Below are positions 1-12,614 of a stretch of 41,404 bases of DNA, one piece after another; the first letter of the stretch is position 1; every line of letters begins with the position of its first letter. The notes beneath the pieces were generated by a model. It searched no databases and was not told the DNA's origin. It worked only from the letters and a program-made list of their open reading frames with translations. The translations under genes were made by a program, and so were the position numbers. Origin of the DNA: Phytoamicus setariae (GTDB lineage: Bacteria; Pseudomonadota; Alphaproteobacteria; Rhizobiales; Rhizobiaceae); NCBI RefSeq assembly GCF_016722925.1, contig NZ_JAEQNC010000024.1, positions 1-41,404 of the forward strand, given 5' to 3'.

Positions 1-1
1 C

Positions 2-175
2 GGCCAGACCAGCACGTCAATCGACATCCTCGGCGGCAACCAGTCCGACGCGGTCAATATCCGCCAGATGCCAAAGCACCGCTTGCTTGGCTGCAGGTGG
101 CCGAAAACTGCTCTCAAAATCGAGACGATCACGACCGGCGGCAACGCAAAGCCGACCGATGGCAATGAAGCCTGA
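2..175 (+). CDS. C-terminal end of a phage-type endolysin-like protein (TIGR02594-like), partial
   Basis: The frame is open from the window edge to a TGA at 173-175 and encodes the last 57 residues. The segment with LGGNQSDAVNI followed by a basic stretch and RWP resembles, from memory, the conserved end of the TIGR02594 family, small NlpC/P60-like hydrolases used as endolysins by prophages and gene-transfer-agent-like elements. A holin-like gene starts 11 bases downstream, which fits a lysis cassette. The catalytic N-terminal part lies outside the window, so neither catalytic residues nor length can be checked. The family call rests on a short motif and on context. Confidence 0.5.
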   Translation, partial: GQTSTSIDILGGNQSDAVNIRQMPKHRLLGCRWPKTALKIETITTGGNAKPTDGNEA

Positions 176-186
176 AAGGATATCCT

Positions 187-390
187 ATGAAGCGCACTAT
201 CAACCCCGTATTTCTCCGCATCGCTCTCCGCTACGGTGCTGGCGCACTCGCCGGTTACTCGCTTCTGCCGAAGGACATCACCGACATGCTCGCGAACGAT
301 CCGGAACTTGTCGGCCTAGCTGCTGTCGTGGTGGGTGCCGGCGTCGAAGGCTTCTATGTCATCGCCAAGCGCCTCGGCTGGCGCACCTGA
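187..390 (+). CDS. small holin-like membrane protein
   Basis: This encodes 67 residues. ATG 187 has an AGGA ribosome binding site six bases upstream. A first hydrophobic segment (about residues 9-27) and a second, Gly/Val/Ala-rich one (about 42-58) frame a short polar loop. The protein ends in a basic tail (AKRLGWRT). Size, two membrane segments and position directly after an endolysin-like gene suggest a class II holin or a related phage membrane protein that lets the endolysin reach the murein. I recognise no specific holin family, so the function is inferred from topology and neighbours. It probably forms one transcript with the genes on either side. Confidence 0.5.
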   Translation: MKRTINPVFLRIALRYGAGALAGYSLLPKDITDMLANDPELVGLAAVVVGAGVEGFYVIAKRLGWRT

Positions 391-437
391 TCCACGCCGC
401 ATTACCATTTCCGCATCGTAGGCATGAAAGAGACCAA

Positions 438-722
438 ATGAGCCAGGTAGATGAGATGGAAGATCCAATCATATCACTGCGGAGCCGAATGCGGGACGTC
501 GAGAAGACGGTCATCATCCATGGCGAAAAATTGACAAGGCTGGACGAGTGGAAGCAAAAGCTCGATATCGATCAGGCTCGTCGCGACGAGCAGTTTCTCG
601 GGATCAAGGCCGACCTGAACTCGATCAAGAGCAACCTGTCGCGGATTGTCTGGCTGATCGGCAGCACACTTATCGTGGCTGTTGTCGGCTTCCTTGTGGC
701 GGGCGGATTTCAGGTCCCGTAA
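438..722 (+). CDS. small protein with coiled coil and C-terminal membrane anchor
   Basis: This encodes 94 residues from ATG 438; a purine-rich AAAGAG lies about seven bases upstream. The first 65 residues are highly charged with heptad-like spacing (MRDVEKTVIIHGEKLTRLDEW and on), consistent with a coiled coil. Residues about 70-90 form one hydrophobic helix (IVWLIGSTLIVAVVGFLVAGG), giving a tail-anchored topology. It lies 47 bases after the holin-like gene in the same direction. Such proteins are common at the end of phage lysis modules, where some act as spanins or accessory holins, but no family is recognised. A longer frame starting further upstream runs through the holin gene and is not needed. 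Confidence 0.5.
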   Translation: MSQVDEMEDPIISLRSRMRDVEKTVIIHGEKLTRLDEWKQKLDIDQARRDEQFLGIKADLNSIKSNLSRIVWLIGSTLIVAVVGFLVAGGFQVP

Positions 723-831
723 GAGGTAGCTGGCGCGTGGGGAAGTCACGGCGGGGAACGAAGGGTCGGGTGCAAATGTTGACCGGCGTTAGGAGACCTC
801 GCCCATTTACTGAAAGGCAACGGGTAGGCAC

Positions 832-857
832 GGAACCTTTTCGGGCGAGAGATTGTT
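832..857 (+). promoter_or_regulatory. possible EcfG-type promoter (GGAAC-N18-GTT)
   Basis: GGAAC at 832-836 and GTT at 855-857 are 18 bases apart. The general stress sigma factor EcfG of alphaproteobacteria recognises GGAAC-N16-18-GTT. No coding frame follows, but a strong hairpin terminator lies about 50-90 bases downstream, so the transcript would be a short RNA. The spacing is one base longer than the usual 17 and the match may be chance. Confidence 0.25.
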
Positions 858-903
858 ACCTCAAAGCGAGACTACCCAACCTTACTAGTTGTCTCGCGAA
901 CTT

Positions 904-946
904 GGCCGCTCCTTTTGACCAGAACAGGAGGGGCGGTCTCGTTTTG
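904..946 (+). terminator. hairpin followed by a T-rich stretch, probable Rho-independent terminator
   Basis: A 14-base stem (904-917 with 925-938, four G-U pairs when read as + strand RNA) encloses the loop ACCAGAA and is followed by TCGTTTTG. The pairs are GU rather than AC in this direction, which favours function on the + strand. It may end the phage lysis transcript or a short RNA from the promoter-like site at 832-857. Confidence 0.5.
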
Positions 947-961
947 AGCTCGCTAGATGCG

Positions 962-1204
962 TCAGTGTCTCGTGCTCCAAAACCCGTCCATAGCGCCAGC
1001 TCGACAATAATCCAACAGACCCCGGGTGTCTCGGAGGCCTGCCTGATAGCCACGCAAGAGCAATTGCGCGAGCCTGTTACATTTTTCGATGTCTGGTTCA
1101 CAGACGGTTTCTGCTGTTAATTTCTCGTACAGATCACGCAATAACAACATCTCTAGTGGTGTCAAAATCGTTCCATTGTACATAAGTAACTGCCTCAAGC
1201 TCAT
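962..1204 (-). CDS. small hypothetical protein, helical, unknown function
   Basis: This encodes 80 residues if it starts at ATG 1204 (MSLRQLLMYNG); ATG 1183 is an alternative. The body has regularly spaced Leu and charged residues (LTPLEMLLLRDLYEKL, then CNRLAQLLLRGYQAG) and looks like two or three amphipathic helices, as in many unnamed small rhizobial proteins. There is no membrane segment or signal peptide. A repeat shared with 8019-8103 ends right at its start codon, so that repeat may act as its leader. No family is recognised. The regular amino-acid pattern makes it more believable than the opposite-strand frames, but the gene call is tentative. Confidence 0.4.
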   Translation of the reverse strand: MSLRQLLMYNGTILTPLEMLLLRDLYEKLTAETVCEPDIEKCNRLAQLLLRGYQAGLRDTRGLLDYCRAGAMDGFWSTRH

Positions 1205-1282
1205 CGAGCGGAAGCAGCCATCTCCCCGTCGTCTGCGCCCGATATCTATGGCTGACGATGCGCGCAGTATGCGCTTGAGCCT
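1199..1282 (-). repeat. copy A of a two-copy leader-like element
   Basis: About 80% identical over some 75 bases to 8019-8103, including GGAAGCAG, GCGCCCG, ATGGCTGAC and TGCGCTTG blocks, with one indel. Both copies lie directly upstream of a small minus-strand reading frame. TCGTC and GACGA in this copy can pair at the same place where the other copy pairs GTCAGC with GCTGAC. It could be a cis-acting RNA leader or an intergenic mosaic repeat. Confidence 0.45.
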
Positions 1283-1325
1283 GTACATTAGCAAGGCAGC
1301 TATACACTTGGAGCTGCCGGTGTCG

Positions 1326-1577
1326 TCAAGTTGGGAGTCGAAGCATTTTGGAGGGGGGGTGAGCGTTTGCTACCATCCACAGTGCGACAATGATTTCGAC
1401 TTGGCCCCATCCGGCGGCCTTTCCCGCTTCAATCAAGCGAGTTTTGAATTCCTCTGTCGAACGTTGGGGGCCCGCGTAGAGCTCTTCTTGCTTTCGCCAC
1501 TCGGATTCAACTGCATCGCGACAATCCACGATGCGGCGAGTGTATTGGCCGGGTTTCTTGGGCGGGCAGATTTCCAT
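1326..1577 (-). CDS. small hypothetical protein, paralogue of the gene at 19196-19513
   Basis: This encodes 83 residues from ATG 1577 (MEICPPKKPG); a GTG 42 bases upstream with a GAGG site is an alternative start. It resembles the protein at 19196: both begin MEI, both have a Cys-x-x-Ala element near residue 20, and both have a C-terminal AGW-x-x-QEI/VEII-x-A helix (AAGWGQVEIIVALWMVANAH against RAGWERQEIIQAVLELGRLY). The start was chosen from this similarity, since no clear ribosome binding site precedes it. Function is unknown. The two copies lie 18 kb apart, both in accessory regions. Confidence 0.4.
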   Translation of the reverse strand: MEICPPKKPGQYTRRIVDCRDAVESEWRKQEELYAGPQRSTEEFKTRLIEAGKAAGWGQVEIIVALWMVANAHPPSKMLRLPT

Positions 1578-2098
1578 AACGAGGAAACGTGGCAGTATCA
1601 AATAAGTTGCGCACCGCACCTCTGCGCCTCACGACGGACTTTTGCTGCTCCACTATTTTGCAATTCTGTGCCGGAGTACCCGGATGGCAAAGCGACCTAG
1701 CCCCCCCTTGCGGGTTGATGATTATCCGCTCACCTCGCGGCCGATCGAAAGGCGTGATCCACGGCAGGTAGGCAGGCATTGTTGCTTGAGAGTAGGCTGG
1801 ACTTGATTCCTGGAGCCAAGCAGGACAGCCGCCAACCCTAAAGCGCGGGCTTGAAAACAATCATAGGTGGGATTCTTCCCACGGCGCTTTGGGCGTGACG
1901 TTGGACGCGAATGTTTTTCCACAGGCTGTCCAATGATGGACCTGACTAGGATGCATTGTCAGCCTCTCCAGCGCCCACGGGCGTTCGGCCGTTCCATCGA
2001 TAACCGCCTAAGAAAAATTCCCGCTAAATATATTTGTGCATCGCAACATAAATACCCACTTGTTAGCTTCATGCCCATCACGGGCATAGGAGATTGAT
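1578..2098. other. intergenic region without a convincing gene
   Basis: Short frames occur on both strands but none has a ribosome binding site, regular codon use or recognisable protein pattern. The final 100 bases are AT-rich (AAATATATTTGTGCATCGC) and probably carry the promoter of the esterase gene at 2099. The AGGAG at 2088-2092 is that gene's ribosome binding site. Confidence 0.5.
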
Positions 2099-3208
2099 GT
2101 GCGCCGAGACCAAGATTCACGCAGATTGGTTGAGCTTACAAACTTCGGGTCTAATCCCGGCGTGCTCAAGTGCTGGCTCTACCTGCCCACCATACTAGCC
2201 CCAAAAACACCTCTCGTAGTCGTAATGCATGGATGCGCTCAGAATGCGGCCGCATTTGATCTTGGTTCCGGCTGGAGCCAGTTGGCAGAAGAGAAGGGAT
2301 TCGCGGTGCTTTTCCCGGAGCAGCAGCGCGCCAACAACGCAAACCTGTGCTTCAACTGGTTCGAGCCCGGCGATACCCAATGCGGTGCGGGAGAAGCTCT
2401 GTCTATACGGGAGATGATAGGTCATTGCATCCTCTCGCATGGGATGGATGCGAGCAGGGTGTTCATAACCGGACTGTCGGCCGGAGGGGCCATGGCAAAT
2501 GTTATGCTGGCCACATACCCAGAGGTCTTTGCGGGCGGCGCGATTATCGGTGGGCTTCCCTACGGGGTGGCTTCAAACGTCGGTCAGGCGTTCGAACGAA
2601 TGCAGGGCCGTAACCCACCGAGTGTCACGCAACTGCGGTCGGCTCTGGCAACTGCGTCATCAAAACGAGCCCAATTGCCGAAAATTTCAGTCTGGCACGG
2701 GACGCACGATCAAACCGTCAGGCAGATTAATGCTGAACACACAGCAAGCCAGTGGCTTGGCATTCATGGTTTGTCCGGCACGCCGGGCACGGTGGAGGCG
2801 GTCAACGGCCACACCCGGAAGACCTGGCTAGACAAGAACGGCAAAGAAGCCGTCGAAATCTATCTAATCAGCGGAATGGCGCACGGCGTGCCCTTGTCAT
2901 CGGGCGCAAAGGTCCCCTTGGGAAATACCGGACCGTTCATGCTCGAGGCTGGGATTTCGTCCACCGCTCGAATTGCCCGGTACTGGGGTCTTGCCAAAGA
3001 CAACGATGTCAGCGACGCCGAGGGCGTGGTCAGGTCAGGCAATCAACACGAACCGATTCTGGAGGGTATTGAGGCTGTCATGGCGAAGGCAATGGGATAC
3101 GCGAAATCAACGGCGTTTACCGAACAATCCCAGTTCCAGGGACATACCACTCAAGGCGTCAGCAAGGTCATAAACGACGCGCTGCGCGCTGCGGGGTTGA
3201 CGCGATAA
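2099..3208 (+). CDS. PHB depolymerase family esterase
   Basis: This encodes 369 residues from GTG 2099, with AGGAG six bases upstream. It is an alpha/beta hydrolase of the Esterase_PHB (PHB depolymerase) family: the oxyanion-hole strand VVVMHGCAQNA (residues 40-50), the conserved FPEQQRANNANLCFNWF block (72-88) and the nucleophile elbow GLSAGG with Ser127. The late SGMAHG holds the likely catalytic His and the WHGTHDQTV segment the likely acid. The family cleaves short-chain polyhydroxyalkanoates or other esters such as feruloyl or aryl esters; the substrate cannot be told here. No signal peptide is seen, so a cytoplasmic or granule-associated role is possible. It stands alone, convergent with the stress operon at 3258-4198. 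The length is usual for the family. Confidence 0.85.
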   Translation: MRRDQDSRRLVELTNFGSNPGVLKCWLYLPTILAPKTPLVVVMHGCAQNAAAFDLGSGWSQLAEEKGFAVLFPEQQRANNANLCFNWFEPGDTQCGAGEALSIREMIGHCILSHGMDASRVFITGLSAGGAMANVMLATYPEVFAGGAIIGGLPYGVASNVGQAFERMQGRNPPSVTQLRSALATASSKRAQLPKISVWHGTHDQTVRQINAEHTASQWLGIHGLSGTPGTVEAVNGHTRKTWLDKNGKEAVEIYLISGMAHGVPLSSGAKVPLGNTGPFMLEAGISSTARIARYWGLAKDNDVSDAEGVVRSGNQHEPILEGIEAVMAKAMGYAKSTAFTEQSQFQGHTTQGVSKVINDALRAAGLTR

Positions 3209-3221
3209 TCCGAATGTTGGG

Positions 3222-3254
3222 AAAAAATGCCGGCGATCGTAAGATCGCCGGCAT
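3222..3254 (-). terminator. Rho-independent terminator of the YflT-like gene
   Basis: A perfect 12-base stem (3227-3238 with 3243-3254) with loop GTAA is followed on the minus strand by six T (A-run 3222-3227 on the + strand). It starts four bases after the stop codon of the minus-strand gene. The stem may also block read-through from the convergent esterase gene. Confidence 0.9.
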
Positions 3255-3257
3255 CAG

Positions 3258-3854
3258 TCAATCTGCGCGCGGATAGCGGGCGCGCTCCTGTTGGATCTGG
3301 TCAGTCTGGTAGGGAGAGAGCTCCGGGTCGAAGCCTTTCCAACCCTGTTGCTCGTAGGCATTGCGCCGAGCAATTGGGTCTACCCAGTTCGCACCCTTGA
3401 GAATGCTCTCGGCCTCGGCATAGCGGCTTTCGTCAACTCTTGCAGTCACGAGCGATCCACCACGGCGCACCCCCTCGGCATAGATATGCGCATCTTCCTC
3501 GGGAACGCCGGAGCTTGTCAGAGCACCGATAAGGCCACCCGTCGCACCACCCACTGCAGCCCCGCCGACAGCGCCGACAGCCAGAGCAGCAAGCCATCCT
3601 GCTGCAACGACCGGCCCGATGCCGGGAATAGCGAGAATACCCAAGCCTGCGAGCAGACCGCCTGCACCGCCCACCACTGCACCGACGCCTGCGCCGGTGC
3701 TCGCGTCCTCAGCGGCATTCGATTCGTTATAGTGCCCGTCGCCGTTGTTGGAGACAATGCTGATGTCATTATCAGAAATGCCCGCGCTTCTGAGGTTGGC
3801 GACGGCGTCAGTCGCATCTTCATAGGTGTCGAAAAGACCGGTAACTGTTTTCAT
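3258..3854 (-). CDS. YflT-like general stress protein with glycine-rich core
   Basis: This encodes 198 residues. The N-terminus MKTVTGLFDTYEDATDAVANLRSAG, about residues 1-45, matches the heat-induced stress protein YflT domain (PF11181), a small ferredoxin-like fold. A long Gly/Ala/Val-rich stretch (about 53-118) looks like glycine-zipper membrane-interacting helices. The C-terminal part (SGVPEEDAHIYAEGVRRGGSLVTARV) repeats the domain type in a second half, as in other rhizobial proteins of this kind. It follows the PepSY-like gene after 29 bases in the same direction and probably shares its EcfG-type promoter (4242-4266). The molecular role is unknown; the family is linked to general stress responses. 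Confidence 0.8.
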   Translation of the reverse strand: MKTVTGLFDTYEDATDAVANLRSAGISDNDISIVSNNGDGHYNESNAAEDASTGAGVGAVVGGAGGLLAGLGILAIPGIGPVVAAGWLAALAVGAVGGAAVGGATGGLIGALTSSGVPEEDAHIYAEGVRRGGSLVTARVDESRYAEAESILKGANWVDPIARRNAYEQQGWKGFDPELSPYQTDQIQQERARYPRAD

Positions 3855-3883
3855 GGGAGTACTCCTTGGTTATAGAATGCGGG

Positions 3884-4198
3884 TTATTGCGCGACGACAT
3901 TGCCTTGATAGTCCAGGCCAACGGCCATTGACTGGCCATCCTTCATTGCGGTGCCGCGCCAAACACCTTTGTCATCGAGCTTGAGGGCCCGTACGTCGGA
4001 ATAACCGCCTTGAGTGATGCGGTCCTTCGCCTGTGCCTCGGTGAACGAGTTTTCGCCTTCCACCGGCGCGTTTGCGCTCACGGTGTCGGGGTTGACGACT
4101 GCCGGGGTCTTGATGTCGGCGGTGGTTTGCGACGTCTGAGCGACGGCGTGCATAGACGCTGCGCTGAGCAGCGCCGCTGCGATCAAAATCATTTTCAT
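3884..4198 (-). CDS. periplasmic PepSY-like small protein
   Basis: This encodes 104 residues. A cleavable signal peptide is visible (MKMILIAAALLSAASMHAVAQ, cut near residue 21). The mature part has the pattern of a rhizobial family, from memory, related to PepSY domains: NSFTEAQAKDRITQGGYSDV, then KLDDKGVWRGTAMKDGQ and LDYQGNVV at the end. PepSY-like domains are small periplasmic modules often tied to protease inhibition or stress, and the exact function here is unknown. It is first in a two-gene operon with the YflT-like gene. An EcfG-type promoter (GGAAC-N17-GTT) lies 44-68 bases upstream, suggesting control by the general stress sigma factor. Confidence 0.75.
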   Translation of the reverse strand: MKMILIAAALLSAASMHAVAQTSQTTADIKTPAVVNPDTVSANAPVEGENSFTEAQAKDRITQGGYSDVRALKLDDKGVWRGTAMKDGQSMAVGLDYQGNVVAQ

Positions 4199-4241
4199 GG
4201 GATTTCCTCGTTAGCGAATCCGGTTGGGTTCGTGCAGGGTA

Positions 4242-4266
4242 AACGCGCACCGCTCGACAACGTTCC
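4242..4266 (-). promoter_or_regulatory. EcfG-type general stress promoter of the PepSY/YflT operon
   Basis: On the minus strand GGAAC (4266-4262) is followed after exactly 17 bases by GTTTACC (GTT at 4244-4242). This matches the GGAAC-N16/17-GTT promoter of EcfG/RpoE2-type sigma factors. The operon's first ATG is 44 bases downstream. A second inverted GGAAC at 4274-4278 on the other strand makes the -35 region partly palindromic. Confidence 0.65.
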
Positions 4267-4472
4267 TTTTTCAGGGAACGCGGCTACGTCAACGAAGCCA
4301 TGCTTTTAATGGAGAAGGTGGGCATTGCGGACACATTGGACGAAGGGAACTGCCGGACGAAGACTGCATCGCCGTATTCATCCAGAAACTCGGGAAACTC
4401 CGGGTTCGGGGGCGCGAGCCTTCCGTCAAACTGTAGACAGTGTTCCGAAGTGCACAATTAACGTTCTTGTTA

Positions 4473-4511
4473 CAATTCCCGGAGACTACTCTCGCTGATT
4501 GCCGGGAATTG
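4473..4511. repeat. perfect 10-base inverted repeat in intergenic DNA
   Basis: CAATTCCCGG (4473-4482) and CCGGGAATTG (4502-4511) are separated by 19 bases. No T-run follows on either side, so it is not an obvious terminator. It could be a regulator site or an RNA hairpin; no adjacent gene explains it. Confidence 0.4.
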
Positions 4512-4538
4512 AAAGAATCCCGTTGCCACGCGAACTCA

Positions 4539-4834
4539 TTGATGCCCCGAGCCCTTATGGCGAATGCCAGTGTCCACGTACACTTCGCTTTTTGAGGCTC
4601 TGAGAGGGAACTCCGGATGCTATGGTGCGTTATCCCACGATGCGGAGCATTGCTCGTTCGCTCCGCGCAAATTGGCCGTTCTTTGGTTTTTCTCCACATC
4701 AGGCCCGAAGAACGGCCCTCTCTGCTTCGGGAGTTCAGACTGGGGAACCATATTGATCATCGGGCGTTGAGAAGACGCGAAGACATTGGTGCCCCCCGCG
4801 CCTTTAGGGCGAACGCCATCGTCGACGTACACTT
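4539..4834. repeat. two diverged direct copies of a 47-49 base segment
   Basis: 4539-4585 and 4786-4834 align with about 80% identity and a two-base gap. On the minus strand both read as related peptides: VYVDTGIRHKGSG in the first and VYVDDGVRPKGAGG in the second. This suggests an old tandem duplication of a short coding segment, the first copy being frame-disrupted. Confidence 0.45.
4607..4631 (+). promoter_or_regulatory. possible orphan EcfG-type promoter
   Basis: GGAAC at 4607-4611 and GTT at 4629-4631 are 17 bases apart. No gene follows on the + strand for over 1 kb. It could drive a non-coding RNA or be a chance match. Confidence 0.25.
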
Positions 4835-4900
4835 GGCCGTTCTCCGGCGTTCTCCCCTGACAGAACAAGCCCGCCGGGGGACGGTCACGTTTGGCGGCAT
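4620..4900 (-). pseudogene. small gene with a probable frameshift near its start
   Basis: From 4868 to 4620 the minus strand is open and reads RTPENGQVYVDDGVRPKGAG, then NVFASSQRPMINMVPQSELP, a regular polar peptide. The only ATG with a sensible position (4900) is out of frame with it: one base seems missing in the A-rich stretch just after the start, where MPPKRDRPPAG would result if it were restored. Otherwise a TTG at 4868 without a ribosome binding site would have to serve. A degenerate second copy of its core lies at 4539-4585. No family is named with confidence. It may be a decayed or a poorly understood small gene. Confidence 0.35.
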
Positions 4901-5118
4901 TTTAGTCTTCTAACTTAAAAATCTCGGCAGGTGAGCGCTATTGCAACTGGAAGCCGACTTTTGTCAGGCATAGCCGATTGTTTGATGTGGCGTCAGGGAG
5001 GACCTGACTTTGCGCATATTTTGTTTCTTCCGTTACTCGCTATTTATCCAGAGAGCGGATGCAAGTGATCCAGCGCCAAAAGGGCCCCCGAGTGAATAAA
5101 CCACTAGAAAAAGACCCG

Positions 5119-5247
5119 CTAAGCTGTCCCCGGCGAGGCGCGAACCAGGCGCGTCAGGTTAAGATAGATGAGCATCAAGGCTGCTGCGGATCCAAGCAAA
5201 AAACCGTTGGCGAAATGCTTGACCATGAATGTATGGAGCGAGGACAT
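5119..5247 (-). CDS. 42-residue single-span membrane protein
   Basis: ATG 5247 has GGAG seven bases upstream and the frame ends at TAG 5119. The protein begins MSSLHTFMVKHF, has one hydrophobic helix (FLLGSAAALMLIYL, about residues 16-29) and a short basic tail. Small proteins of this layout are frequent in rhizobial genomes but I cannot assign a family. A GGAAC-N18-GTT promoter-like site lies 31-56 bases upstream, which would place it in the general stress regulon like its neighbours. The strong ribosome binding site and clean hydrophobic segment support a real gene. Confidence 0.5.
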   Translation of the reverse strand: MSSLHTFMVKHFANGFLLGSAAALMLIYLNLTRLVRASPGTA

Positions 5248-5277
5248 TGGCTTTCTCCGGTATGCTGCCAAGCGTTT

Positions 5278-5303
5278 AACACGTCGGGCTCGATATTGGT
5301 TCC
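5278..5303 (-). promoter_or_regulatory. EcfG-type promoter upstream of the small membrane protein
   Basis: On the minus strand GGAAC (5303-5299) and GTT (5280-5278) are separated by 18 bases, with the small gene's ATG 31 bases further on. The spacing is one base longer than the best consensus. Confidence 0.4.
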
Positions 5304-5440
5304 GGCAAGCTTATGAGGGCCGCTTGCCGGTAAACGAAAACAGCTGGGGCCAGGGCATTGGTCTCCGGAGCCACGTCATAGGAGAACTTGCGAACATTCA
5401 CGTGTTCTGCGTAGTCGCTAAAACAATTCTCGACATTTGC

Positions 5441-5465
5441 GGAACCATTGCGTTTCCCTGCGGTT
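5441..5465 (+). promoter_or_regulatory. EcfG-type promoter of hairpin RNA copy 1
   Basis: GGAAC 5441-5445 and GTT 5463-5465 are exactly 17 bases apart. The conserved structured element starts 11 bases after the first base of GTT, close to where transcription would begin. The second copy of the element has the same arrangement with an 18-base spacer. Confidence 0.65.
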
Positions 5466-5473
5466 TGAAATCG

Positions 5474-5560
5474 GCGGGATCGGACTAAGCGATCTCGCCG
5501 ACCGTCTTCCGGTGCATCCGGATTTCTTAGGAGCAGTCAGCCGGAAGACGGTCACCTGTA
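5474..5560 (+). ncRNA. candidate stress-induced small RNA, copy 1
   Basis: The element has a 5' hairpin (GCGGGATCG 5474-5482 with CGATCTCGC 5490-5498, one G-U pair) and a second, perfect 13-base-pair hairpin (5500-5512 with 5541-5553) with a 28-base apical region containing GGATTTCTTAGGAGCAGTC. The related copy at 8161-8250 keeps both hairpins. In the second stem a U-A pair here is C-G there and another U-A is U-G, so pairing is conserved rather than sequence. No reading frame is preserved between the copies. There is no poly-T tract after the stem, so the 3' end is uncertain. I do not recognise it as a known family. Confidence 0.6.
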
Positions 5561-5639
5561 GCTCCGCCCAGCCGGCACGAACCTTTGAAGCCGCTGGCGC
5601 GTGAAGCGCAAGGTTTGCAACAGACGACTAACCTGGATC

Positions 5640-5664
5640 GGAACGATTCAACTGGCAATACGTT
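5640..5664 (+). promoter_or_regulatory. EcfG-type promoter of the COG4315-like gene
   Basis: GGAAC 5640-5644, 17-base spacer, GTT 5662-5664. The start codon of the secreted protein gene is at 5727, leaving a leader of about 50 bases. Confidence 0.6.
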
Positions 5665-5726
5665 GGGTGAGCTTGGGCCCGGTGTTGCATGCATTCCGCC
5701 TGCACTCTCGGACCGGAGTAAGAATC

Positions 5727-6095
5727 ATGAAATCGATACTGATTGCGATCAGCCTATTGGCAGTCACAGCCGTATCAGCTTCCGCTGCTGATCCGGGCAA
5801 GATGATTGACACGAAGATGGGCAAGGCCATGGCCACAGAACAGGGGATGGTCCTCTATACCTTCGACAAGGACACGATGGGCAAGTCGAATTGCGACAAG
5901 ACATGTCTGAAGACCTGGCCGGCTTTCCATGCGAACTCCAAGGCCAAAGCAGAAGGCGAATGGTCTTTAGTCAAGGCTGCTGATGGCAAGAAGATGTGGG
6001 CCTATGAAGGCAAGCCGCTCTACATGTACGCCGACGACAAGGCCGGCGAGACAAAGGGAGATGGTGTAGGCGGGATGTGGCATATCGCCAAGTAA
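5727..6095 (+). CDS. secreted repeat protein of COG4315 / Lipoprotein_15 type
   Basis: This encodes 122 residues from ATG 5727 (MKSILIAISLL); the 42 in-frame codons upstream lack a start context and cover the promoter. Residues 1-20 form a signal peptide ending ASAAD. The mature part carries the family pattern twice: MVLYTFDKDTMGKSNCDKTCLKTWPAF and then KPLYMYADDKAGETKGDGVGGMWHI, typical of the PF03640 secreted repeat. No lipobox Cys is present at the cleavage site, so it is periplasmic or secreted rather than a lipoprotein. Family function is unknown. The EcfG-type promoter at 5640-5664 suggests stress-induced expression. Confidence 0.85.
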   Translation: MKSILIAISLLAVTAVSASAADPGKMIDTKMGKAMATEQGMVLYTFDKDTMGKSNCDKTCLKTWPAFHANSKAKAEGEWSLVKAADGKKMWAYEGKPLYMYADDKAGETKGDGVGGMWHIAK

Positions 6096-6109
6096 AGTCC
6101 ATGGCATCG

Positions 6110-6143
6110 ACGGGGAGGATCGTGTTGTCGCGATGCTCCCCGT
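6110..6143 (+). terminator. hairpin after the COG4315-like gene
   Basis: ACGGGGAG (6110-6117) pairs with CTCCCCGT (6136-6143) across 18 bases, starting 14 bases after the stop codon. There is no T-run, so termination may be weak or the stem may only protect the 3' end. Confidence 0.4.
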
Positions 6144-6314
6144 ACGCGTCGAATGTCAGATCGGGCTGCTGCCGCTACACTTTACCTCGATGAATCGGTG
6201 GAACGACTGTCGAAAGAGTATCGGAGACATTCCGACAACCAGATCGCACGGGCAAACTCGAGAGTTCTGCGACTGTTCAGCAGTCACTTTGCCGCGCTTA
6301 AATGAAGGAAATCG

Positions 6315-6512
6315 TCACTGCGGTTGTGCCGTGGCAATCCGAAACCTCGAATGCTTTCCCATAAACCGCGTTGTCAAGGAGGAAGCCATCCACACGGTAT
6401 CGTCGAGCTGCCGCAAGCCCTGCCATGCGATGACCAATTTCCGGCAGGCATCTTCGTTTTCGATGGTTCGGTCGAACCCCGCCCCCTGGATGGCAATCCC
6501 CGGCGGCGGCCA
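6315..6512 (-). pseudogene. possible DUF982-like remnant without a usable start
   Basis: The minus-strand frame ending in TGA at 6315 reads WPPPGIAIQGAGFDRTIENE, then DACRKLVIAWQGL. This has the spacing of the small rhizobial DUF982 family (W..P..I......R.I....A...L...W). There is no ATG, GTG or TTG upstream in this frame; the nearby ATG at 6513 is in another frame, so a frameshift is likely. The C-terminal half matches the family poorly. The frame follows in phase after the stop of the YfbU gene. The call is weak and based on pattern memory. Confidence 0.3.
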
Positions 6513-6536
6513 TGTCCCCCCGCCCCGCAGGACCGG

Positions 6537-7019
6537 TTATGAAGCGTGAATGATCGCCTCGGCTTCGGCTTCGCTCAATTCATATTTGTTCGCAGCTTTC
6601 CGCCAAATCCTCAGCATGCGCCGATAGCCTGGCAACGTACTTATGCTATGCGAATTCCTGTTGGGAGCAGATTCCGGGTAGAGCCTGCATTGATCAATAA
6701 GGTATTTGGCGAACGCAAAATGCGGATCGTTGTTGGCATCGAAGCCCTCGAATTTGGATGCCTTTTCATTGGACGGCGTCCATCCATTTTGCTTTGCGCT
6801 TCCCAGCGCACGGAACATTTCCAGGACATCGTAGACCTCCTTCTGCATTTCTTCAGACGCCTCCTCATCGTTGAACATGTGGTATAATTCGGAATAGCGG
6901 GACGTGTCCCCGGAGGCCAGAATCTCTTGCTGAGCCTGCAGATCGGCTACTTTGCCCGGATTGTGCTCCTTCAGAATTTCCAACTGGTTCCACAAAATCA
7001 GGCGTGTCGGGCGGTCCAT
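6537..7019 (-). CDS. YfbU family protein
   Basis: This encodes 160 residues from ATG 7019 (MDRPTRLILWNQLEIL), which has AGGAG seven bases upstream; a start nine codons earlier would overlap that site. The pattern RLILWNQLEIL..., a SRYSELYHMF block, EVYDVLEMFRAL, FEGFDANNDPHFAFAKYLI and a C-terminal YRRMLRIWRKA matches the YfbU family (PF03887). These are small helical cytoplasmic proteins; E. coli YfbU has been linked to cell death after mazF induction, but the biochemical role is unknown. The gene stands alone between the COG4315-like gene and the porin. Confidence 0.85.
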   Translation of the reverse strand: MDRPTRLILWNQLEILKEHNPGKVADLQAQQEILASGDTSRYSELYHMFNDEEASEEMQKEVYDVLEMFRALGSAKQNGWTPSNEKASKFEGFDANNDPHFAFAKYLIDQCRLYPESAPNRNSHSISTLPGYRRMLRIWRKAANKYELSEAEAEAIIHAS

Positions 7020-7090
7020 CGCTTCGCTCCTTCCAGGCTTGTTCAATTGTGTTTGGGCATGATGAGAATCTGCTGGGGGTTACCAAGGAC

Positions 7091-7125
7091 AAAACCCTAA
7101 AACCCCGCTGCCAAAGGCTGCGAGG
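7091..7125 (-). terminator. probable terminator of the outer-membrane protein gene
   Basis: On the minus strand CCTCGCAGCC (7125-7116) can pair with GGCAGCGGGG (7112-7103) with one G-U pair and one mismatch, around a three-base loop. TTTTAGGGTTTT follows. It lies 33 bases after the porin stop codon. Confidence 0.55.
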
Positions 7126-7157
7126 TTACTCGGTGTAAGGATTATACTCAGGACTGT

Positions 7158-7793
7158 TCAGAATTTGTAGGCGACGCCGATCGTGGCCTGGTGCTGGTCC
7201 AGCTCGACATCGACGCCGCGGACCGTCTTGTTGTCGTAATCGCTAAACCGATACTCCCCACGGACGAAGATGTTCTGGGTAACAGCCCAATCGATGCCGG
7301 CGCCGGCCGTCCAGCCGTTGAACGTGCGGTCCTCGTCGCCGAACGGAGTGTCGATGACGCCCCTGGTCGCCGCCCAGCCGCCCGTGGCGTAGATAAGCGT
7401 TTGATCGAACGCATAGCCGACACGTCCCCGCAGGGAGCCGGCCCAATCGGTGCCGATGTCACCATGGGTTCCGAAGGCGTGATACCTGTTGTCGTTCCAG
7501 TTGTAACTCACATCACCTTCGACGCCGATTACGAAGTTATCGAACGTGAAATTGTAGCCGCCGAACGTCCCCATGAGAAAGCCGTTGAAGTTTTCCGATG
7601 CGCTCGCTCCGGGGATGCTGAAATCACCGTTAAGCCAGCCGCCGCCCTTATGGATACCAATATAGGCACCGGTCCAGTCATACGCAGTCGCTTCCTCGAC
7701 GATAGGCGATGGTGTTGGCTCAGTAGCGATGTCCGCCGCAACTGCAGGCGACGCAACAAACACAGCAAGCACGGCTAAGGAAAATCTGTTCAA
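7158..7793 (-). CDS. outer-membrane beta-barrel protein (Omp25/porin-like)
   Basis: This encodes 211 residues. The signal peptide MNRFSLAVLAVFVASPAVAA is followed by a short Pro/Glu linker and YDWTGAYIGIHKGGGW, the opening strand of rhizobial/Brucella Omp25/Omp31-like eight-stranded barrels. Alternating strands follow (GGYNFTFDNFVIGVEGDVSY, GSLRGRVGYAF, FVRGEYRFSDYD). The protein ends HQATIGVAYKF with the terminal Phe needed for outer-membrane insertion. The role is structural, in outer-membrane stability or interaction with the outside. It is a single gene with its own downstream hairpin. Confidence 0.9.
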   Translation of the reverse strand: MNRFSLAVLAVFVASPAVAADIATEPTPSPIVEEATAYDWTGAYIGIHKGGGWLNGDFSIPGASASENFNGFLMGTFGGYNFTFDNFVIGVEGDVSYNWNDNRYHAFGTHGDIGTDWAGSLRGRVGYAFDQTLIYATGGWAATRGVIDTPFGDEDRTFNGWTAGAGIDWAVTQNIFVRGEYRFSDYDNKTVRGVDVELDQHQATIGVAYKF

Positions 7794-7818
7794 GTCACTC
7801 TCCTTTGTAATCTGCTTC

Positions 7819-8007
7819 TTAGGGAATTATAATATTAGAAGGGGGTAAATGAAGTATTACTGGTCGGATCACCCGATCGAGTGGGTAACGATGATGCGAC
7901 GTCGAATTGTCTTCTCCGGCGGTCGACCGGTATTGTAGCCGCTCACTAACAAACTTCAGGCGCGTGTCAGGGGCATATGTTGGCTTAGGCTTATTGTCTT
8001 TGGCCAC
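7819..8007 (-). CDS. 62-residue hypothetical protein
   Basis: GTG 8007 is preceded by GGAGG six bases upstream. The first half (MAKDNKPKPTYAPDTRLKF) is basic and Pro-rich; the C-terminal half is hydrophobic in places but has no membrane helix. No family is recognised. The repeat copy B ends just upstream of the ribosome binding site, the same position the related repeat has before the small gene at 962-1204. The ribosome binding site supports translation, but the amino-acid pattern is not typical of a conserved domain. Confidence 0.35.
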   Translation of the reverse strand: MAKDNKPKPTYAPDTRLKFVSERLQYRSTAGEDNSTSHHRYPLDRVIRPVILHLPPSNIIIP

Positions 8008-8018
8008 GCGCCGCCTCC

Positions 8019-8103
8019 ACTCACCGAACGGAAGCAGTCATCTTCCTGTCGTCAGCGCCCGGTCTCGATGGCTGACAATGTGGCATCATGCGCTTGTAGG
8101 TGC
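8019..8103 (-). repeat. copy B of the two-copy leader-like element
   Basis: Related to 1199-1282 at about 80% identity. It contains GGAAG...CTTCC and GTCAGC...GCTGAC inverted pairs, so it could fold as RNA. It is placed right before the GTG-started small gene at 7819-8007 and about 25 bases left of the promoter for the second hairpin RNA, which points the other way. Confidence 0.45.
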
Positions 8104-8126
8104 CGGAAAAAAATACGGAAAATTGT

Positions 8127-8152
8127 GGAACGTCTTGCCACTCCAGGTTGTT
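8127..8152 (+). promoter_or_regulatory. EcfG-type promoter of hairpin RNA copy 2
   Basis: GGAAC 8127-8131 and GTT 8150-8152 are separated by 18 bases (another GTT lies at N15). The structured element starts 11 bases after this GTT, exactly as in copy 1. Confidence 0.55.
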
Positions 8153-8160
8153 ATTATTCT

Positions 8161-8250
8161 GCGGGATCGATCTACGTGGATCTCGCACGGCCGTCCTCCG
8201 GTGCACCCGGATTTCTCACGGAGCAGTCAGCCGGGGGACGGTTGCAATTT
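8161..8250 (+). ncRNA. candidate stress-induced small RNA, copy 2
   Basis: Homologous to 5474-5560. The 5' hairpin is GCGGGATC with GATCTCGC. The main hairpin pairs CCGTCCTCCGG (8191-8201) with CCGGGGGACGG (8231-8241) and can be lengthened by two G-U pairs and one C-G pair. The apical region keeps CCGGATTTCTCACGGAGCAGTCAG. Downstream sequence is T-rich (GGTTGCAATTTAGC) but lacks a clean poly-T tract. It lies in a gene-free stretch between the porin region and the kinase gene. Confidence 0.55.
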
Positions 8251-8832
8251 AGCTGGGAACTATCCCGCTCAAAAGATGTTAAAGTAATGCGAAGATGCAG
8301 GTTTCCCCCGCGTGCCCATGGCGAAAGCTGCATTCAGCCAACTCGGCCGTCCCAGCAGAACAAGTTTGTGAATCGCCATCGCTGTGCCCCGTGATCGCAA
8401 TAGCCGGAAATATGTTGTTGCGGACTTGACAGCCTCGGCACATCAACGGTCAGATGCACAACCCGGAGCGCGGTCACGTTCGCGCGATTTGGCATAGTTG
8501 TCCATCGATTTCTCCTTTGCGGATGAGGCGGCAATTCAGACAGGTTGGGAGCTCGCCTGCCATTTCGTTGGCCACGGGGAGAAACCGGAAAAATCCACGT
8601 GTTCTCCATCCCTGTCACGTCCGGTTGACATGATCGCCAGCCTCCAAAGGCAAATGCTTGAGCCGGAGCATGGTTCCGAAATCGGGTAGCAGGCTTCTGC
8701 TTGCCCGCGACCCGCGAGTGCGATGAAGCTAACGACGATCAACGAGGCTTGACCCGATGCCCGAGTAGGTTAACGGTTGTGATGTCGAGACGGAAAAACC
8801 CGCCAAAACGCTGGTTTTGGCCGCATTTGGCA
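8251..8832. other. intergenic region, mostly without recognisable content
   Basis: Several frames exist on both strands without ribosome binding sites or protein-like patterns. The only translation signal seen is AAAGGAG before the 20-codon frame at 8443-8505 (minus strand). The region probably includes decayed genes. Confidence 0.4.
8443..8505 (-). CDS. 20-residue reading frame with a strong ribosome binding site, possibly a gene stub
   Basis: ATG 8505 is preceded by AAAGGAG with a six-base spacer and reads MDNYAKSRERDRAPGCASDR before a TGA. The good site with a very short, highly charged product suggests either a leader peptide or the start of a gene truncated by deletion. Nothing downstream continues it. 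Confidence 0.25.
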   Translation of the reverse strand: MDNYAKSRERDRAPGCASDR

Positions 8833-10500
8833 TTAACCCGTCTTCGAGAAAAGCTTCTCAATTTCTGTCGCGAGTTGCGATTGGCTATAAGGCTTTCCTA
8901 TTCGCGGAAGGTCGATTCCTGATCCTGAGGGTAGTTCGGCATACCCTGAGGCTACGAGGATAGGCAGTTTGGGGTGGAGCTTCCTCGCCGCACGTCCGAG
9001 TTCAGCCCCATTCATGCCGGGCATCGAATAATCGGTAATCATCAGATCGAACTCATGTCCTGTCTCAAGGAGGGCTAGTGCAGCGGCGCCTGAATTGGCT
9101 TCCGTCACTACATGACCGAGGTCTTCGAGCATGTCGACGGAACTCATGGCGATCAAAGCGTCATCGTCCACCATAAGAACCCGCAGCTGCGCCGTACTAC
9201 CGAGCATTTTCGGTGGAGCTTGGCCCTTGACCTCCTCAACAACCCGGGCCGTGGCTGGTAACCACAACTCCGCCGTGGTTCCTATTCCATAAGCACTAGA
9301 GAGCTTCAACGTGCCGTGAAGCTGGACAGCGAGGCCATGAGTCATGGAAAGGCCGAGGCCCGTGCCTTTTCCCAACTCCTTGGTCGAGAAAAAGGGTTCG
9401 ATCGCTTTTTCCAAAGTTTCCTTGTTCATTCCATGTCCGGTGTCTGAGACTCCGAGCACGAGGTATTTGCCGCGCTCCAGCTCTTTGGATGAATTGTTGA
9501 GAGTTTCCTCCCGCACGAATATCGAGAGAGTGCCACCTTCAGGCATCGCGTCACGTGCGTTAATCGCCAGGTTGAGAAGCGCGAGTTCCACCTGATTGGA
9601 GTCCGCCATCGCCATCGAGAGGCCAGCGGTCAGTCGTTTTTCAATCCGGATATTTGGATCAATTGACCTCGCGAGGAGCTCGTCCATGCCGTTGACCAAC
9701 CCCGGCAAGTCGACGGGCTTTACAGTCAGGTCTTGTCGCCGCCCAAAGGCTAAAAGGCGCTGGGTGAGTGCTGCGCCGCGCCTTGCGCCGCTTATTGCCC
9801 CGTCGAGAAGTCGACTTGCTTTAGGATTATCGACAAAGTGTTTGGCGAGGAGTTCGAGATTTCCCAGAACCGCCATGAGTAGGTTGTTGAAATCATGAGC
9901 GATACTGCCAGTGAGCTGGCCTATCGCCTCAAGTTTTTGGACCTGGCGCAGCTGATCCTCGGCTCGCTCGCGCTGGGCAATTTGGTCGACAAGAAAGCTG
10001 TGGGCCTTCTCCAGCTCGTTGGTACGTTGGAGGACACGTTCTTCCAGGGTCGCATTGAGACGACTGATCTCATCAAGGCTGGCGCGCGCCTCAAATTGTC
10101 TGTGTCGACCCTTCAGCGCGGATCGGGCGACGCTGATGAAGGTCGTTGCGTGAAACGGTCTCTCGACGAACGTGACATTTCCGAGAGTTTCGGACAGCCG
10201 CGCCGCCACCGGATTTTGTTCGGGGGGCCCACCTCTCTGGGTAAAAACAATAAACGGGAGATCGGACCACGTAGGTTGTTTCAGAAGCCACGCCGATAAC
10301 GCGTGCAGATCGCCCGTGCGCGCGGATTCCTCGGTCAACACGACGAAGGCGGTGGTATCATTGATGGACGAGACGACGGATGCCAAATCAGATTTTGAAA
10401 ATGACGCAACGCCGCTCTCTCGAAGAAGCGAGATCGCGATCTCGGCGTCCCGGCCTTCAGGCGCACATATAAGTGCGATTGGATGAGCGGTATTAGGAAT
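8833..10500 (-). CDS. hybrid sensor histidine kinase, probably started at an ATT codon
   Basis: This encodes 555 residues if counted from ATT 10500. The order is: an N-terminal pseudo-receiver-like region (IALICAPEGRDAEIAISLL, then VVLTEESARTGDL), a coiled coil (about 140-190), HisKA with His202 in GSIAHDFNN, a HATPase domain (NLAINARDAMPEGG, DTGHGM, KGTGLGLS), and a C-terminal receiver (LRVLMVDDDALIAM, LMITDYSMPGMNG with the phospho-acceptor Asp, and GKP with the switch Lys). No ATG, GTG or TTG exists in frame before TTG 10386, yet the 38 codons upstream clearly encode the domain. GGAGGG lies eight bases before ATT 10500, which overlaps the kaiC stop. No DNA-binding output domain is present. 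It is probably a partner of the KaiC-like ATPase. Confidence 0.85.
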   Translation of the reverse strand: MPNTAHPIALICAPEGRDAEIAISLLRESGVASFSKSDLASVVSSINDTTAFVVLTEESARTGDLHALSAWLLKQPTWSDLPFIVFTQRGGPPEQNPVAARLSETLGNVTFVERPFHATTFISVARSALKGRHRQFEARASLDEISRLNATLEERVLQRTNELEKAHSFLVDQIAQRERAEDQLRQVQKLEAIGQLTGSIAHDFNNLLMAVLGNLELLAKHFVDNPKASRLLDGAISGARRGAALTQRLLAFGRRQDLTVKPVDLPGLVNGMDELLARSIDPNIRIEKRLTAGLSMAMADSNQVELALLNLAINARDAMPEGGTLSIFVREETLNNSSKELERGKYLVLGVSDTGHGMNKETLEKAIEPFFSTKELGKGTGLGLSMTHGLAVQLHGTLKLSSAYGIGTTAELWLPATARVVEEVKGQAPPKMLGSTAQLRVLMVDDDALIAMSSVDMLEDLGHVVTEANSGAAALALLETGHEFDLMITDYSMPGMNGAELGRAARKLHPKLPILVASGYAELPSGSGIDLPRIGKPYSQSQLATEIEKLFSKTG

Positions 10501-11989
10501 TTTCTACGCCCTCCGTCGCCACCAGAGAGCCGCCGACCAGATTGGGCACACCGCGAAGAACGCCTTGGAAATCTGACAACGGTTTTCCTAACTCAAGGCC
10601 TCTATTAGAAATCTGGAATTCTCGGATTGTGTGCTCGTGGTTCCCAGTACGCTTCTTGATTACCGACACGGCGCGTCGGACCTTTCCAGGCGCCTCAAAG
10701 TACCGCAGCAGGATGACAGTGTCTGCAAGATAGGTCACGTCCACAGGAGATTTCATCTCGCCCACCAATCCATGCTGAGCGACCGTAAGAAATGTATTCG
10801 CACCTTGACGATTGAGGTACTGAAGTAGCTCGTGCATGTGAAGAATCAGCGACTGCTCGTCGGGCATCGATACCTGGTATCCGTTAATGCTATCGATGAT
10901 GACGGTTTTTGCGCCCGCACTGTCCACCCGCGAACGAACTCTGTGCGCAAATTCCCCGGGCGACAGTTCCGCAGCATCGAGCTGCTCGATGTGGAGGCTG
11001 CCCCTGTCTTTCATCGCTTCGAGGTCGATGCCCATCTGCTTCATGCGAGCGAAAAGCAATCCCAACTCTTCGTCGAAAATGAACGCCGCCACTTTTTCTC
11101 CGCGGCTGATGGCGGCTGCCAAGTACTGCATAACCCACGTGCTCTTTCCCGTTCCCGCAGGACCCAGAACCAGGGTGCTAGAGCCACGCTCGATGCCACC
11201 CCCTAGCAGCTCATCAATTTCCGGAATTCCGCTCTCGACACGATCGCGGTCAAATGAGGTCTTGTGTTCGCCTGCAATAAGACGGGGGAACACAACGACA
11301 CCACCAGTTCGTATTGTGAAATCATGATAGCCGCCGCGAAAGGCTTGGCCCCGGTATTTGAGGATACGCAACCTCCGGCGCTCCGAGCCGTAGGTTGGTG
11401 CAAGCTCCTCGAGATGGATAACCCCGTGCACCACACTGTGAACCGTCTTGTCGTTCAGTTCCGTTGTCATGTCATCCAAAAGTAGGACCGTGGCCGACTG
11501 GCGTGCGAAATAATGCTTGAGGGCGAGAATCTGCCTGCGGTAGCGCAGAGAGCTTTGCGCAAGCAGCCGTATTTCGGACAGGCTGTCGAGAACGATGCGT
11601 GTCGGCTTGACGCGCTCAACTGCGTCAAAAATCAGCTTCGTTGTTTCACCAAGCTCGAGATCGGAGGAATAGAGAAGGCTCTGCTGTTGACTCGCGTCTA
11701 GCAGGCTTTCCGGAGGCACGAGTTCGAATACTTCGATATTATTATCGAGCTGCATGCCGTGCGAAGCTGCACCCTCTCTTAATTCCTCCTCCGTCTCCGA
11801 AAGGGTCACGAAGAGGCATTTTTCTCCAAGTTTGGCACCCTCAATCAGGAACTGCAGTGCAATCGTCGTTTTCCCCGAGCCGGGGCTGCCTTCCAACAAG
11901 AAGAACCGGCTGCGCGCCAACCCGCCAACCAGAATCTCATCAAGACCAGCCACGCCCGTCTTAGCCTTGTCTCTAAGCCTTTCTTGCAT
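10493..11989 (-). CDS. KaiC-like double RecA-domain ATPase
   Basis: This encodes 498 residues from ATG 11989, with GAGGAG seven bases upstream; the ATG 15 bases earlier would include that site. The two KaiC domains have Walker A motifs GSPGSGKTT (34-42) and GPAGTGKST (276-284), followed by TLSETEEELR and FIFDEELGLLFAR with the catalytic acidic pairs, and Walker B strands RIVLDSLSE and TVIIDSING. At the place of the cyanobacterial CII phosphosites (Ser-Thr) this protein has Thr-Tyr (VTYLADTVILL), usual for non-cyanobacterial KaiC proteins. Known KaiC proteins are ATP-dependent hexameric timers or signalling switches; here a stress or light signalling role with the coupled kinase is inferred. 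No kaiB is seen nearby. Confidence 0.9.
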   Translation of the reverse strand: MQERLRDKAKTGVAGLDEILVGGLARSRFFLLEGSPGSGKTTIALQFLIEGAKLGEKCLFVTLSETEEELREGAASHGMQLDNNIEVFELVPPESLLDASQQQSLLYSSDLELGETTKLIFDAVERVKPTRIVLDSLSEIRLLAQSSLRYRRQILALKHYFARQSATVLLLDDMTTELNDKTVHSVVHGVIHLEELAPTYGSERRRLRILKYRGQAFRGGYHDFTIRTGGVVVFPRLIAGEHKTSFDRDRVESGIPEIDELLGGGIERGSSTLVLGPAGTGKSTWVMQYLAAAISRGEKVAAFIFDEELGLLFARMKQMGIDLEAMKDRGSLHIEQLDAAELSPGEFAHRVRSRVDSAGAKTVIIDSINGYQVSMPDEQSLILHMHELLQYLNRQGANTFLTVAQHGLVGEMKSPVDVTYLADTVILLRYFEAPGKVRRAVSVIKKRTGNHEHTIREFQISNRGLELGKPLSDFQGVLRGVPNLVGGSLVATEGVENS

Positions 11990-12502: not shown

Positions 12503-12614
12503 AGCATGGCGCATTTCATAGGTTACGGATGGCCCGGTTTGTACGCCGTCGGAGCTGTTCAAGATTCGTGAATACTGCATATAGGCGGTCTTCTAGCGAG
12601 GTGATAAAATGAGG

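What the first reader, a model, noticed from the sequence alone, without database searches (positions are those of the whole stretch)
5441..5560. Two-copy structured RNA element with EcfG-type promoters
5474-5560 and 8161-8250 are homologous non-coding elements. Both fold into a short 5' hairpin and an 11-14 base-pair main hairpin. Between copies one U-A pair in the main stem becomes C-G (both bases changed) and another becomes U-G, which indicates selection on RNA structure. Each copy begins exactly 11 bases after the GTT of a GGAAC-N17/18-GTT site, so each seems to have its own general stress promoter. The conserved apical region (GGATTTCT...GGAGCAGTC) could be a contact region with mRNA. 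Caulobacter has a stress-sigma small RNA (GsrN); whether this is related is unknown.
Basis: partly seen in the sequence, partly recalled or inferred. Interest (0 to 1): 0.85.

Follow-up and report, generated by a model that had tools for sequence, protein, structure and literature searches.

The report
Stress-promoter small RNA gene family
An unnamed bacterium, probably a relative of rhizobia, carries a cluster of related small RNA genes that look switched on by its general stress regulator, and two of them have a loop that matches the ribosome-binding site of that regulator's own mRNA, which suggests a built-in brake on the stress response.

Summary
5473-5553 (E4) and 8160-8243 (E5) are homologous twin-hairpin elements with a compensatory change, each just downstream of a GGAAC-N17/18-GTT (EcfG-type) site. 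"Two-copy" is too small. The window holds three more elements of this design (promoters 832, 4607, 4744), a truncated copy (8256) and a relic (4505-4610); one more full copy lies on another contig. No convincing homologue was found in 393 other family genomes with either of two models, under strict filters. Three copies have the C-tract 5' loop described for GsrN. E4/E5 lack it. Their conserved apical loop instead pairs with the Shine-Dalgarno region of this genome's own ecfG (14 and 12 contiguous pairs, G-U included). Among 1,698 sampled start regions ecfG ranks first for E5 and second for E4, and the eight congeners' ecfG starts do not match; but shuffled loops find an equally strong site in 5-6 of 60 trials. 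Best reading: an expanded family of EcfG-driven small RNAs, E4/E5 perhaps repressing ecfG. Structure is well supported, promoters rest on motif statistics, the target is a prediction. There are no expression data.

The parts
832..857 (+). E1: EcfG-type promoter motif (GGAAC-N18-GTT)
866..938 (+). E1: 5' hairpin (866-897) and main hairpin (904-938)
   Evidence: 36.8 bits with R3, which contains it. No pairwise sequence match to the others above z 4
4505..4610 (+). Relic of an E3-type element, no EcfG-type site; directly upstream of E2
   Evidence: R2 20.6 bits, E 0.0042
4607..4631 (+). E2: EcfG-type promoter motif (GGAAC-N17-GTT)
4639..4717 (+). E2: 5' hairpin (about 4642-4666) and main hairpin (4674-4717)
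   Evidence: 44.2 bits with R3, which contains it
4744..4768 (+). E3: EcfG-type promoter motif
   Evidence: aligned with the C19 copy
4782..4886 (+). E3: 5' domain with CCCCCC loop (about 4782-4823) and main hairpin (4835-4886)
5441..5465 (+). E4: EcfG-type promoter motif (GGAAC-N17-GTT)
5473..5553 (+). E4 RNA core: 5' hairpin (5473-5499), main hairpin (5500-5553), apical loop 5517-5538 complementary to the ecfG ribosome-binding site
   Evidence: found by R2, which does not contain it (28.9 bits, E 3.9e-5)
8127..8152 (+). E5: EcfG-type promoter motif (GGAAC-N18-GTT)
8160..8243 (+). E5 RNA core: 5' hairpin (8160-8187), main hairpin (8189-8243), apical loop 8206-8228 complementary to the ecfG ribosome-binding site
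   Evidence: found by R2, which does not contain it (18.3 bits, E 0.015)
8256..8280 (+). E6: EcfG-type promoter motif (GGAAC-N17-GTT)
8294..8335 (+). E6: 5' domain with CCCCC loop, homologous to C19/E3; the main hairpin is missing or degenerate
   Evidence: (z 7.5 to C19)

Best explanation
E4 and E5 are genes for small trans-acting RNAs. They belong to a locally expanded family (E1-E6 and a copy on contig C19) in which each full member has a promoter motif of the general stress sigma factor EcfG, a 5' hairpin and a long closed main hairpin that presents a variable loop. Under stress, released EcfG would transcribe them and the loop would base-pair with mRNA start regions. The C-tract members (E3, E6, C19) would act like GsrN on G-rich sites. 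E4/E5 carry another loop, one that covers the ecfG Shine-Dalgarno sequence in the nepR-ecfG mRNA; [quoted passage not shown] Shown: structure, paralogy of E3-E6 and C19, promoter motif, complementarity. Inferred: transcription, EcfG dependence, pairing in the cell, direction of the effect. Family of EcfG-driven RNAs: about 0.8. ecfG as a true target of E4/E5: about 0.42.
For: Folds far better than shuffles. Main stem paired in 73 of 73 cells over six members, three pairs changed on both sides, 0 of 500 shuffles reach the pairing or covariation score. EcfG-type sites about six times denser in the window than in 1.52 Mb of the same genome. Twin hairpins follow 5 of 17 window sites, 1 of 10 near the C19 copy and 2 of 93 elsewhere. 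In all seven elements the first paired base comes after 7 or 8 bases from GTT. R2, built without E4/E5, finds both in the same register. Tandem promoter-plus-RNA units: promoters 137 bp (4607, 4744) and 129 bp (8127, 8256) apart. Target: 14 (E4) and 12 (E5) contiguous pairs over the ecfG Shine-Dalgarno sequence, 0 of 2000 shuffled targets as good for either loop, eight congeners' ecfG starts at -10.8 to -18.7 against -27.1 and -32.2 kcal/mol; ecfG first of 532 start regions for both loops, first (E5) and second (E4) of 1,698; -8.5 and -6.3 kcal/mol left after opening costs, main stem kept.
Against: No transcript data. No homologue outside this genome, so covariation rests on paralogues. E1 and E2 share little sequence with the rest (no pair above z 4); their membership rests on design and short stem motifs. 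No T-run follows the main hairpins in the two stretches scanned, so 3' ends are unknown. For the target: shuffled loops find an equally strong start region in 5 of 60 (E4) and 6 of 60 (E5) trials; L169:16949 beats ecfG for E4 in the larger sample; a coding-strand site at window 28750 is also strong (-27.1, -30.5); 72% of the genome was not ranked; the ecfG locus was in the sample because I had fetched it for nepR.
Confidence: 0.7

Rival explanations
1. EcfG-driven small RNAs as above, but ecfG is not the target: the loop match is chance, and E4/E5 act on mRNAs not ranked here, pair with each other through the CCGG palindrome, or bind a protein. (Nested in the best explanation; it differs only in the target.)
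For: Shuffled loops reach the same best energy in 5 and 6 of 60 trials. L169:16949 is better for E4. Only 28% of the genome was ranked.
Against: The top site falls on the ribosome-binding site of the sigma factor thought to drive the RNAs, for both copies, and not in the eight congeners, in which no E4/E5 was found.
Confidence: 0.4
2. E4 is the leader of the downstream lipoprotein gene (5727-6095), an attenuator rather than a free RNA.
For: E4 ends about 174 bp upstream of that gene on the same strand. A UCCGG-loop-CCGGA hairpin followed by UUUCUU inside E4 looks terminator-like, at the chance rate.
Against: That gene has its own EcfG-type site at 5640. E5 has E6 next on its strand and the well-supported genes beyond run the other way; the C19 copy runs into a convergent response-regulator gene.
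Confidence: 0.06
3. A palindromic DNA repeat without RNA function.
For: Long near-palindromic stem; several copies in one region.
Against: Few copies; each full copy has a promoter at a fixed distance; 11 of 73 pair cells are G-U, which fixes the + strand.
Confidence: 0.04

Closest known systems
GsrN of Caulobacter and the GsrN-like RNAs predicted at Rhizobiaceae ecfG loci (PMC5869019; outline and passages seen)
   Same: Short RNA from an EcfG-type promoter; 5' hairpin with exposed loop; E3 and C19 have six C in a row in the 5' loop and E6 five, next to a small hairpin.
   Different: E4/E5 have no C-tract loop; the family is on contigs C17 and C19, not at the ecfG locus (contig C1); no intrinsic terminator found; several copies; predicted to act on ecfG, where GsrN activates katG.
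SmelB126 of Sinorhizobium (PMC3927594 passages; PMC3616915 passages; table in PMC7143759)
   Same: Multi-copy small RNA (4, 3, 2 and 5 copies in four strains) with a sigma-E2 (RpoE2) motif; the motif I found lies 8 bases before the published 5' end.
   Different: Described with a typical terminator; no match to R2 or R3.
SmelB008 of S. meliloti (table in PMC7143759; sequence L105)
   Same: RpoE2 motif predicted; GGAAC-N17-ATT ends 7 bases before the published 5' end; long closed main hairpin with C-rich loop as folded, and a 5' hairpin with a C-rich loop read by eye.
   Different: No match to R2 or R3.
Bsr6 of Brucella (PMC12772402 passages)
   Same: Small RNA that requires the general stress sigma factor.
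   Different: Its sequence was not compared; no effect on the sigma factor is reported in the passages seen.

Membership tests
GsrN / GsrN-like RNA | EcfG-type promoter motif directly upstream | tested here: met
   motif only, no expression
GsrN / GsrN-like RNA | C-rich exposed loop in the 5' hairpin | tested here: not met
   Absent in E4/E5 (and no C tract of four or more in E1, E2); present in E3, C19 (six C) and E6 (five C). E4/E5 are therefore not filed as GsrN
GsrN / GsrN-like RNA | Sequence homology to Caulobacter GsrN | not tested
   GsrN sequence not fetched; no Rfam family reached its threshold at these elements
GsrN / GsrN-like RNA | Position near ecfG-nepR-phyR (C. crescentus itself is an exception) | tested here: not met
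   nepR/ecfG on contig C1, elements on C17 and C19
GsrN / GsrN-like RNA | Intrinsic terminator at the 3' end | tested here: not met
   No terminator-like site after the main hairpins in 4500-5730 and 8000-8832; E1 and C19 not scanned
GsrN / GsrN-like RNA | Endonucleolytic processing, Hfq effect, target activation | not testable with these tools
   needs RNA work
SmelB126 family | Sequence and structure match | tested here: not met
   Models R2 and R3 give no match in the SmelB126 locus L103
SmelB126 family | Multiple copies, each with a stress-sigma promoter | tested here: met
   (for the elements described here)
Dispersed palindromic DNA repeat | Many copies, independent of promoters | tested here: not met
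   few copies; each full copy has the promoter
Rfam 15 families | Covariance-model score above gathering threshold | tested here: not met
   Whole window: only Atu_At1 (8534-8639, minus) and three tRNAs; relaxed search of 4590-5600: two matches far below threshold

The most novel reading that the evidence does not exclude
E4/E5 are a sigma factor's own RNA brake: EcfG-driven small RNAs, derived within a GsrN-type family by tandem duplication and loop replacement, that bind the ecfG ribosome-binding site inside the nepR-ecfG mRNA, shift the NepR to EcfG ratio and end the general stress response. The array would be a young case of riboregulators gaining new targets by changing the loop while stem design and promoter stay.
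Probability: 0.42. Interest if true: 0.72.

Novelty: new variant of a known kind. Interest (0 to 1): 0.56.

Why it matters
[quoted passage not shown] This locus shows how such a family may grow: intact, truncated and decayed copies stand side by side with different loops on a similar stem and promoter. If the ecfG match is real, it adds a direct post-transcriptional negative loop to the PhyR-NepR-EcfG switch. Two searches of the paper library listed 3 and 5 papers; no title or abstract opening shown there reports such a loop, and the papers themselves were not read for it. One translational fusion could test it.

Tried and rejected
Rejected: mobile or palindromic DNA repeat; mRNA leader; membership of an Rfam family; SmelB126 membership; filing E4/E5 as GsrN (see rivals and membership test).

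Led nowhere: DNA searches of 9 congeneric and 151 family genomes, own genome included. R1 and R2 over 394 family genomes, own included: strict filters with at most 11 and 8 candidates scored per genome, so weak homologues can be missed; four R2 hits at E 0.016-0.05 read as chance. R1 in the genus at E up to 10: weak hits in G007 (E 0.11) and G003 (E 2.4), read as chance. Plasmids, phages and viral contigs: none. One genome contigs pattern scan: two hits in Lachnospiraceae records, read as chance. KaiC-like gene in 81 genomes: present in 10 others, of which I fetched the surroundings in 5, plus one further G006 stretch: 16 EcfG-type sites, no twin hairpin, no R2 match, two weak R1 matches (E 0.24 and 0.61). 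Promoter-plus-stem pattern in the genus: below the reversed-pattern control in 8 of 9 genomes, own included (14 against 17), slightly above in G005 (6 against 5); 5 of the 14 own matches lie in the window. Of the eight loops compared with shuffled versions, five others (C19 both loops, E3 main, E1 main, E6 5') gave nothing better than 18-41 of 60 shuffles; E2's best is its own antisense. MAFFT on whole elements misaligned the promoters and was not used. The match at L092:18150 (-31.7 for both loops, better than ecfG for E4) lies opposite a 623-aa reading frame and was set aside as not mRNA.

Caveats: start-region lists are crude ORF calls (at least 100 aa, 60 aa). The window scan covers 0.475 Mb. 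The twin-hairpin detector was set after seeing the elements; it misses E6 and the congeners' RNAs with shorter stems; anchored on any [CT]GTT it fires at 61 of 5,115 places in 400 kb of control and 16 of 599 in the window. Hits of R3 on E1-E5 and C19 and of R2 on E3, C19 and E6 are by construction. In one search the genome search did not list E1, so it can miss members.

Full report
CHECK. The two elements are real and alike: 84% over 82-85 nt, with no other match better than E 0.2 in the 5.6 Mb genome. Both fold far better than shuffles, on the + strand more than on the - strand, although the - strand also beats chance. The stated compensatory change is there, plus one-sided changes. Two sequences give little statistical weight (263 of 500 shuffles as good), so I looked for more members.

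MORE MEMBERS. A covariance model of the two copies (R1) pointed to two further elements with the same main stem, one in the window at 4808-4886 and one on contig C19. Both have GGAAC-N17-GTT upstream. Folding the sequence downstream of the EcfG-type sites of the window gave five complete twin hairpins (promoters 832, 4607, 4744, 5441, 8127) and a truncated one (8256). In all seven elements, C19 included, the first paired base comes after 7 or 8 bases from GTT. A model of E3, C19 and E6 (R2) then found E4 and E5, neither of which it contains, at 28.9 bits (E 3.9e-5) and 18.3 bits (E 0.015) with promoter and main stem in register, and a decayed copy at 4505-4610 (20.6 bits). A model of the six main hairpins (R3) gave nothing further below E 0.7 in this genome or its eight congeners apart from the antisense strands of known members. 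E1 was not listed there but scores 36.8 bits when its locus is searched, so the genome search can miss members. E1 and E2 share too little sequence with the rest to prove descent.

STRUCTURE. Over the six main hairpins all 73 countable cells pair, three of 13 pairs change on both sides, 0 of 500 shuffles reach the pairing or covariation score, and slid registers pair at most 59%. Eleven of these cells are G-U, which on the other strand would be A-C mismatches; the RNA is therefore read from the + strand. In the C-tract group the enclosing 5' stem differs between C19 and E6 while the loop (CCCCCGCG and GGCGAA) is kept; two positions of this stem are mismatched in E3 and it is shifted by one base in E6.

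PROMOTERS. The window has 16 N17/18 sites against 2.4 by resampling. With N16-18 it has 17 in 41 kb, against 93 in 1.52 Mb of the same genome. Twin hairpins follow 5 of 17 window sites, 1 of 10 in the C19 region and 2 of 93 elsewhere, those two with the minimum of 10 pairs. Two RpoE2-linked RNAs of S. meliloti, SmelB008 and SmelB126, have published 5' ends 7 and 8 bases after the same kind of motif, which fits a start at the foot of the 5' hairpin here. This is motif evidence only. No T-run terminator follows the hairpins in the two stretches scanned.

DISTRIBUTION. Neither R1 nor R2 finds a convincing match in 393 other genomes of the family (strict filters). A pattern of the E4/E5 loop and stem gave two hits, read as chance, in the species collection, where records near this genome may be left out. 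The surroundings of the KaiC-like gene in five other genomes contain no such RNA. At the nepR-ecfG locus seven of nine genomes of the genus have a different RNA of this general design with C-rich loops: five as folded (G001, G003, G004, G006, G008), G002 by its near identity to G003 and G008, and G005 read by eye. G000 and G007 show none there, also with a relaxed promoter. So the family looks like a local expansion, with tandem units of 137 and 129 bp as the likely route.

TARGET. I compared the E4 and E5 apical loops with crude start regions. The best for both is the gene at L072 minus 6921 (434 regions; 532 regions), ahead of the next by 4.9 (E4) and 7.0 (E5) kcal/mol. It encodes an ECF sigma factor (passes NF009169) whose start overlaps the end of nepR; I take it to be EcfG from this position. 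E4 makes 14 and E5 12 contiguous pairs, G-U included, across the Shine-Dalgarno sequence, with further pairs beyond. No shuffled target of 2,000 is as good for either, and the eight congeners' ecfG starts give -10.8 to -18.7 kcal/mol. After paying for opening, -8.5 and -6.3 kcal/mol remain with the main stem intact. Against this: shuffled loops find something as strong in 5 and 6 of 60 trials. In 1,698 start regions (28% of the genome) ecfG is first for E5 but second for E4, behind L169:16949, which is also first if the weaker of the two energies is used. In 37,926 windows of 0.475 Mb on both strands, only ecfG and the antisense of the elements themselves reach both energies, but L092:18150 (antisense to a reading frame) and window 28750 (coding strand) come close. 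The ecfG locus was in the sample because I had fetched it for nepR. I read this as a good but unproven target, about 0.42.

MECHANISM. EcfG released under stress would transcribe the family. C-tract members would pair with G-rich leaders as GsrN does (PMC5869019, passages). E4/E5 would occlude the ecfG start and lower EcfG relative to NepR. Their CCGG palindrome could also let two loops kiss; this was not tested.

RELATION TO KNOWN RNAs. It works like GsrN and like stress-sigma RNAs of S. [quoted passage not shown] E4/E5 are not filed as GsrN, because the C-rich 5' loop was tested and is absent. The multi-copy habit has a precedent in SmelB126 (PMC3927594, passages). Hence: a new variant of a known kind.

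Noticed in passing
window 8534-8639 (-): Atu_At1 sRNA (RF02496, 100.9 bits), about 150 bp from the end of E6's remnant and on the other strand; GGAAC-N17-ATT lies 13 bases before its model start (about 8677-8653), so it may belong to the same stress regulon.
   Followed up: partly
L074 8906, L078 5699(-), L079 5600(-), L077 7673, L076 7954, L080 7583, L073 8202: GsrN-like RNAs with EcfG-type promoters and C-rich loops at the nepR-ecfG locus of seven congeners; G004 and G006 have a third hairpin whose loop holds six C.
   Followed up: partly
window 1-16000: Region rich in EcfG-type sites and in genes of stress type: YflT domain, KaiC-like ATPase, hybrid histidine kinase, SRAP, PRC-barrel, YfbU.
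   Followed up: partly
L062 (G000:C19:15000-34815): A second stress-type region with another copy of the RNA and a close YfbU-like reading frame (10478-11047), suggesting that segments were duplicated between C17 and C19.
   Followed up: partly
window 5508-5522: Alternative hairpin UCCGG-loop-CCGGA followed by UUUCUU inside E4 (also readable in E5); terminator-like, at chance frequency. It could be a folding intermediate.
   Followed up: no
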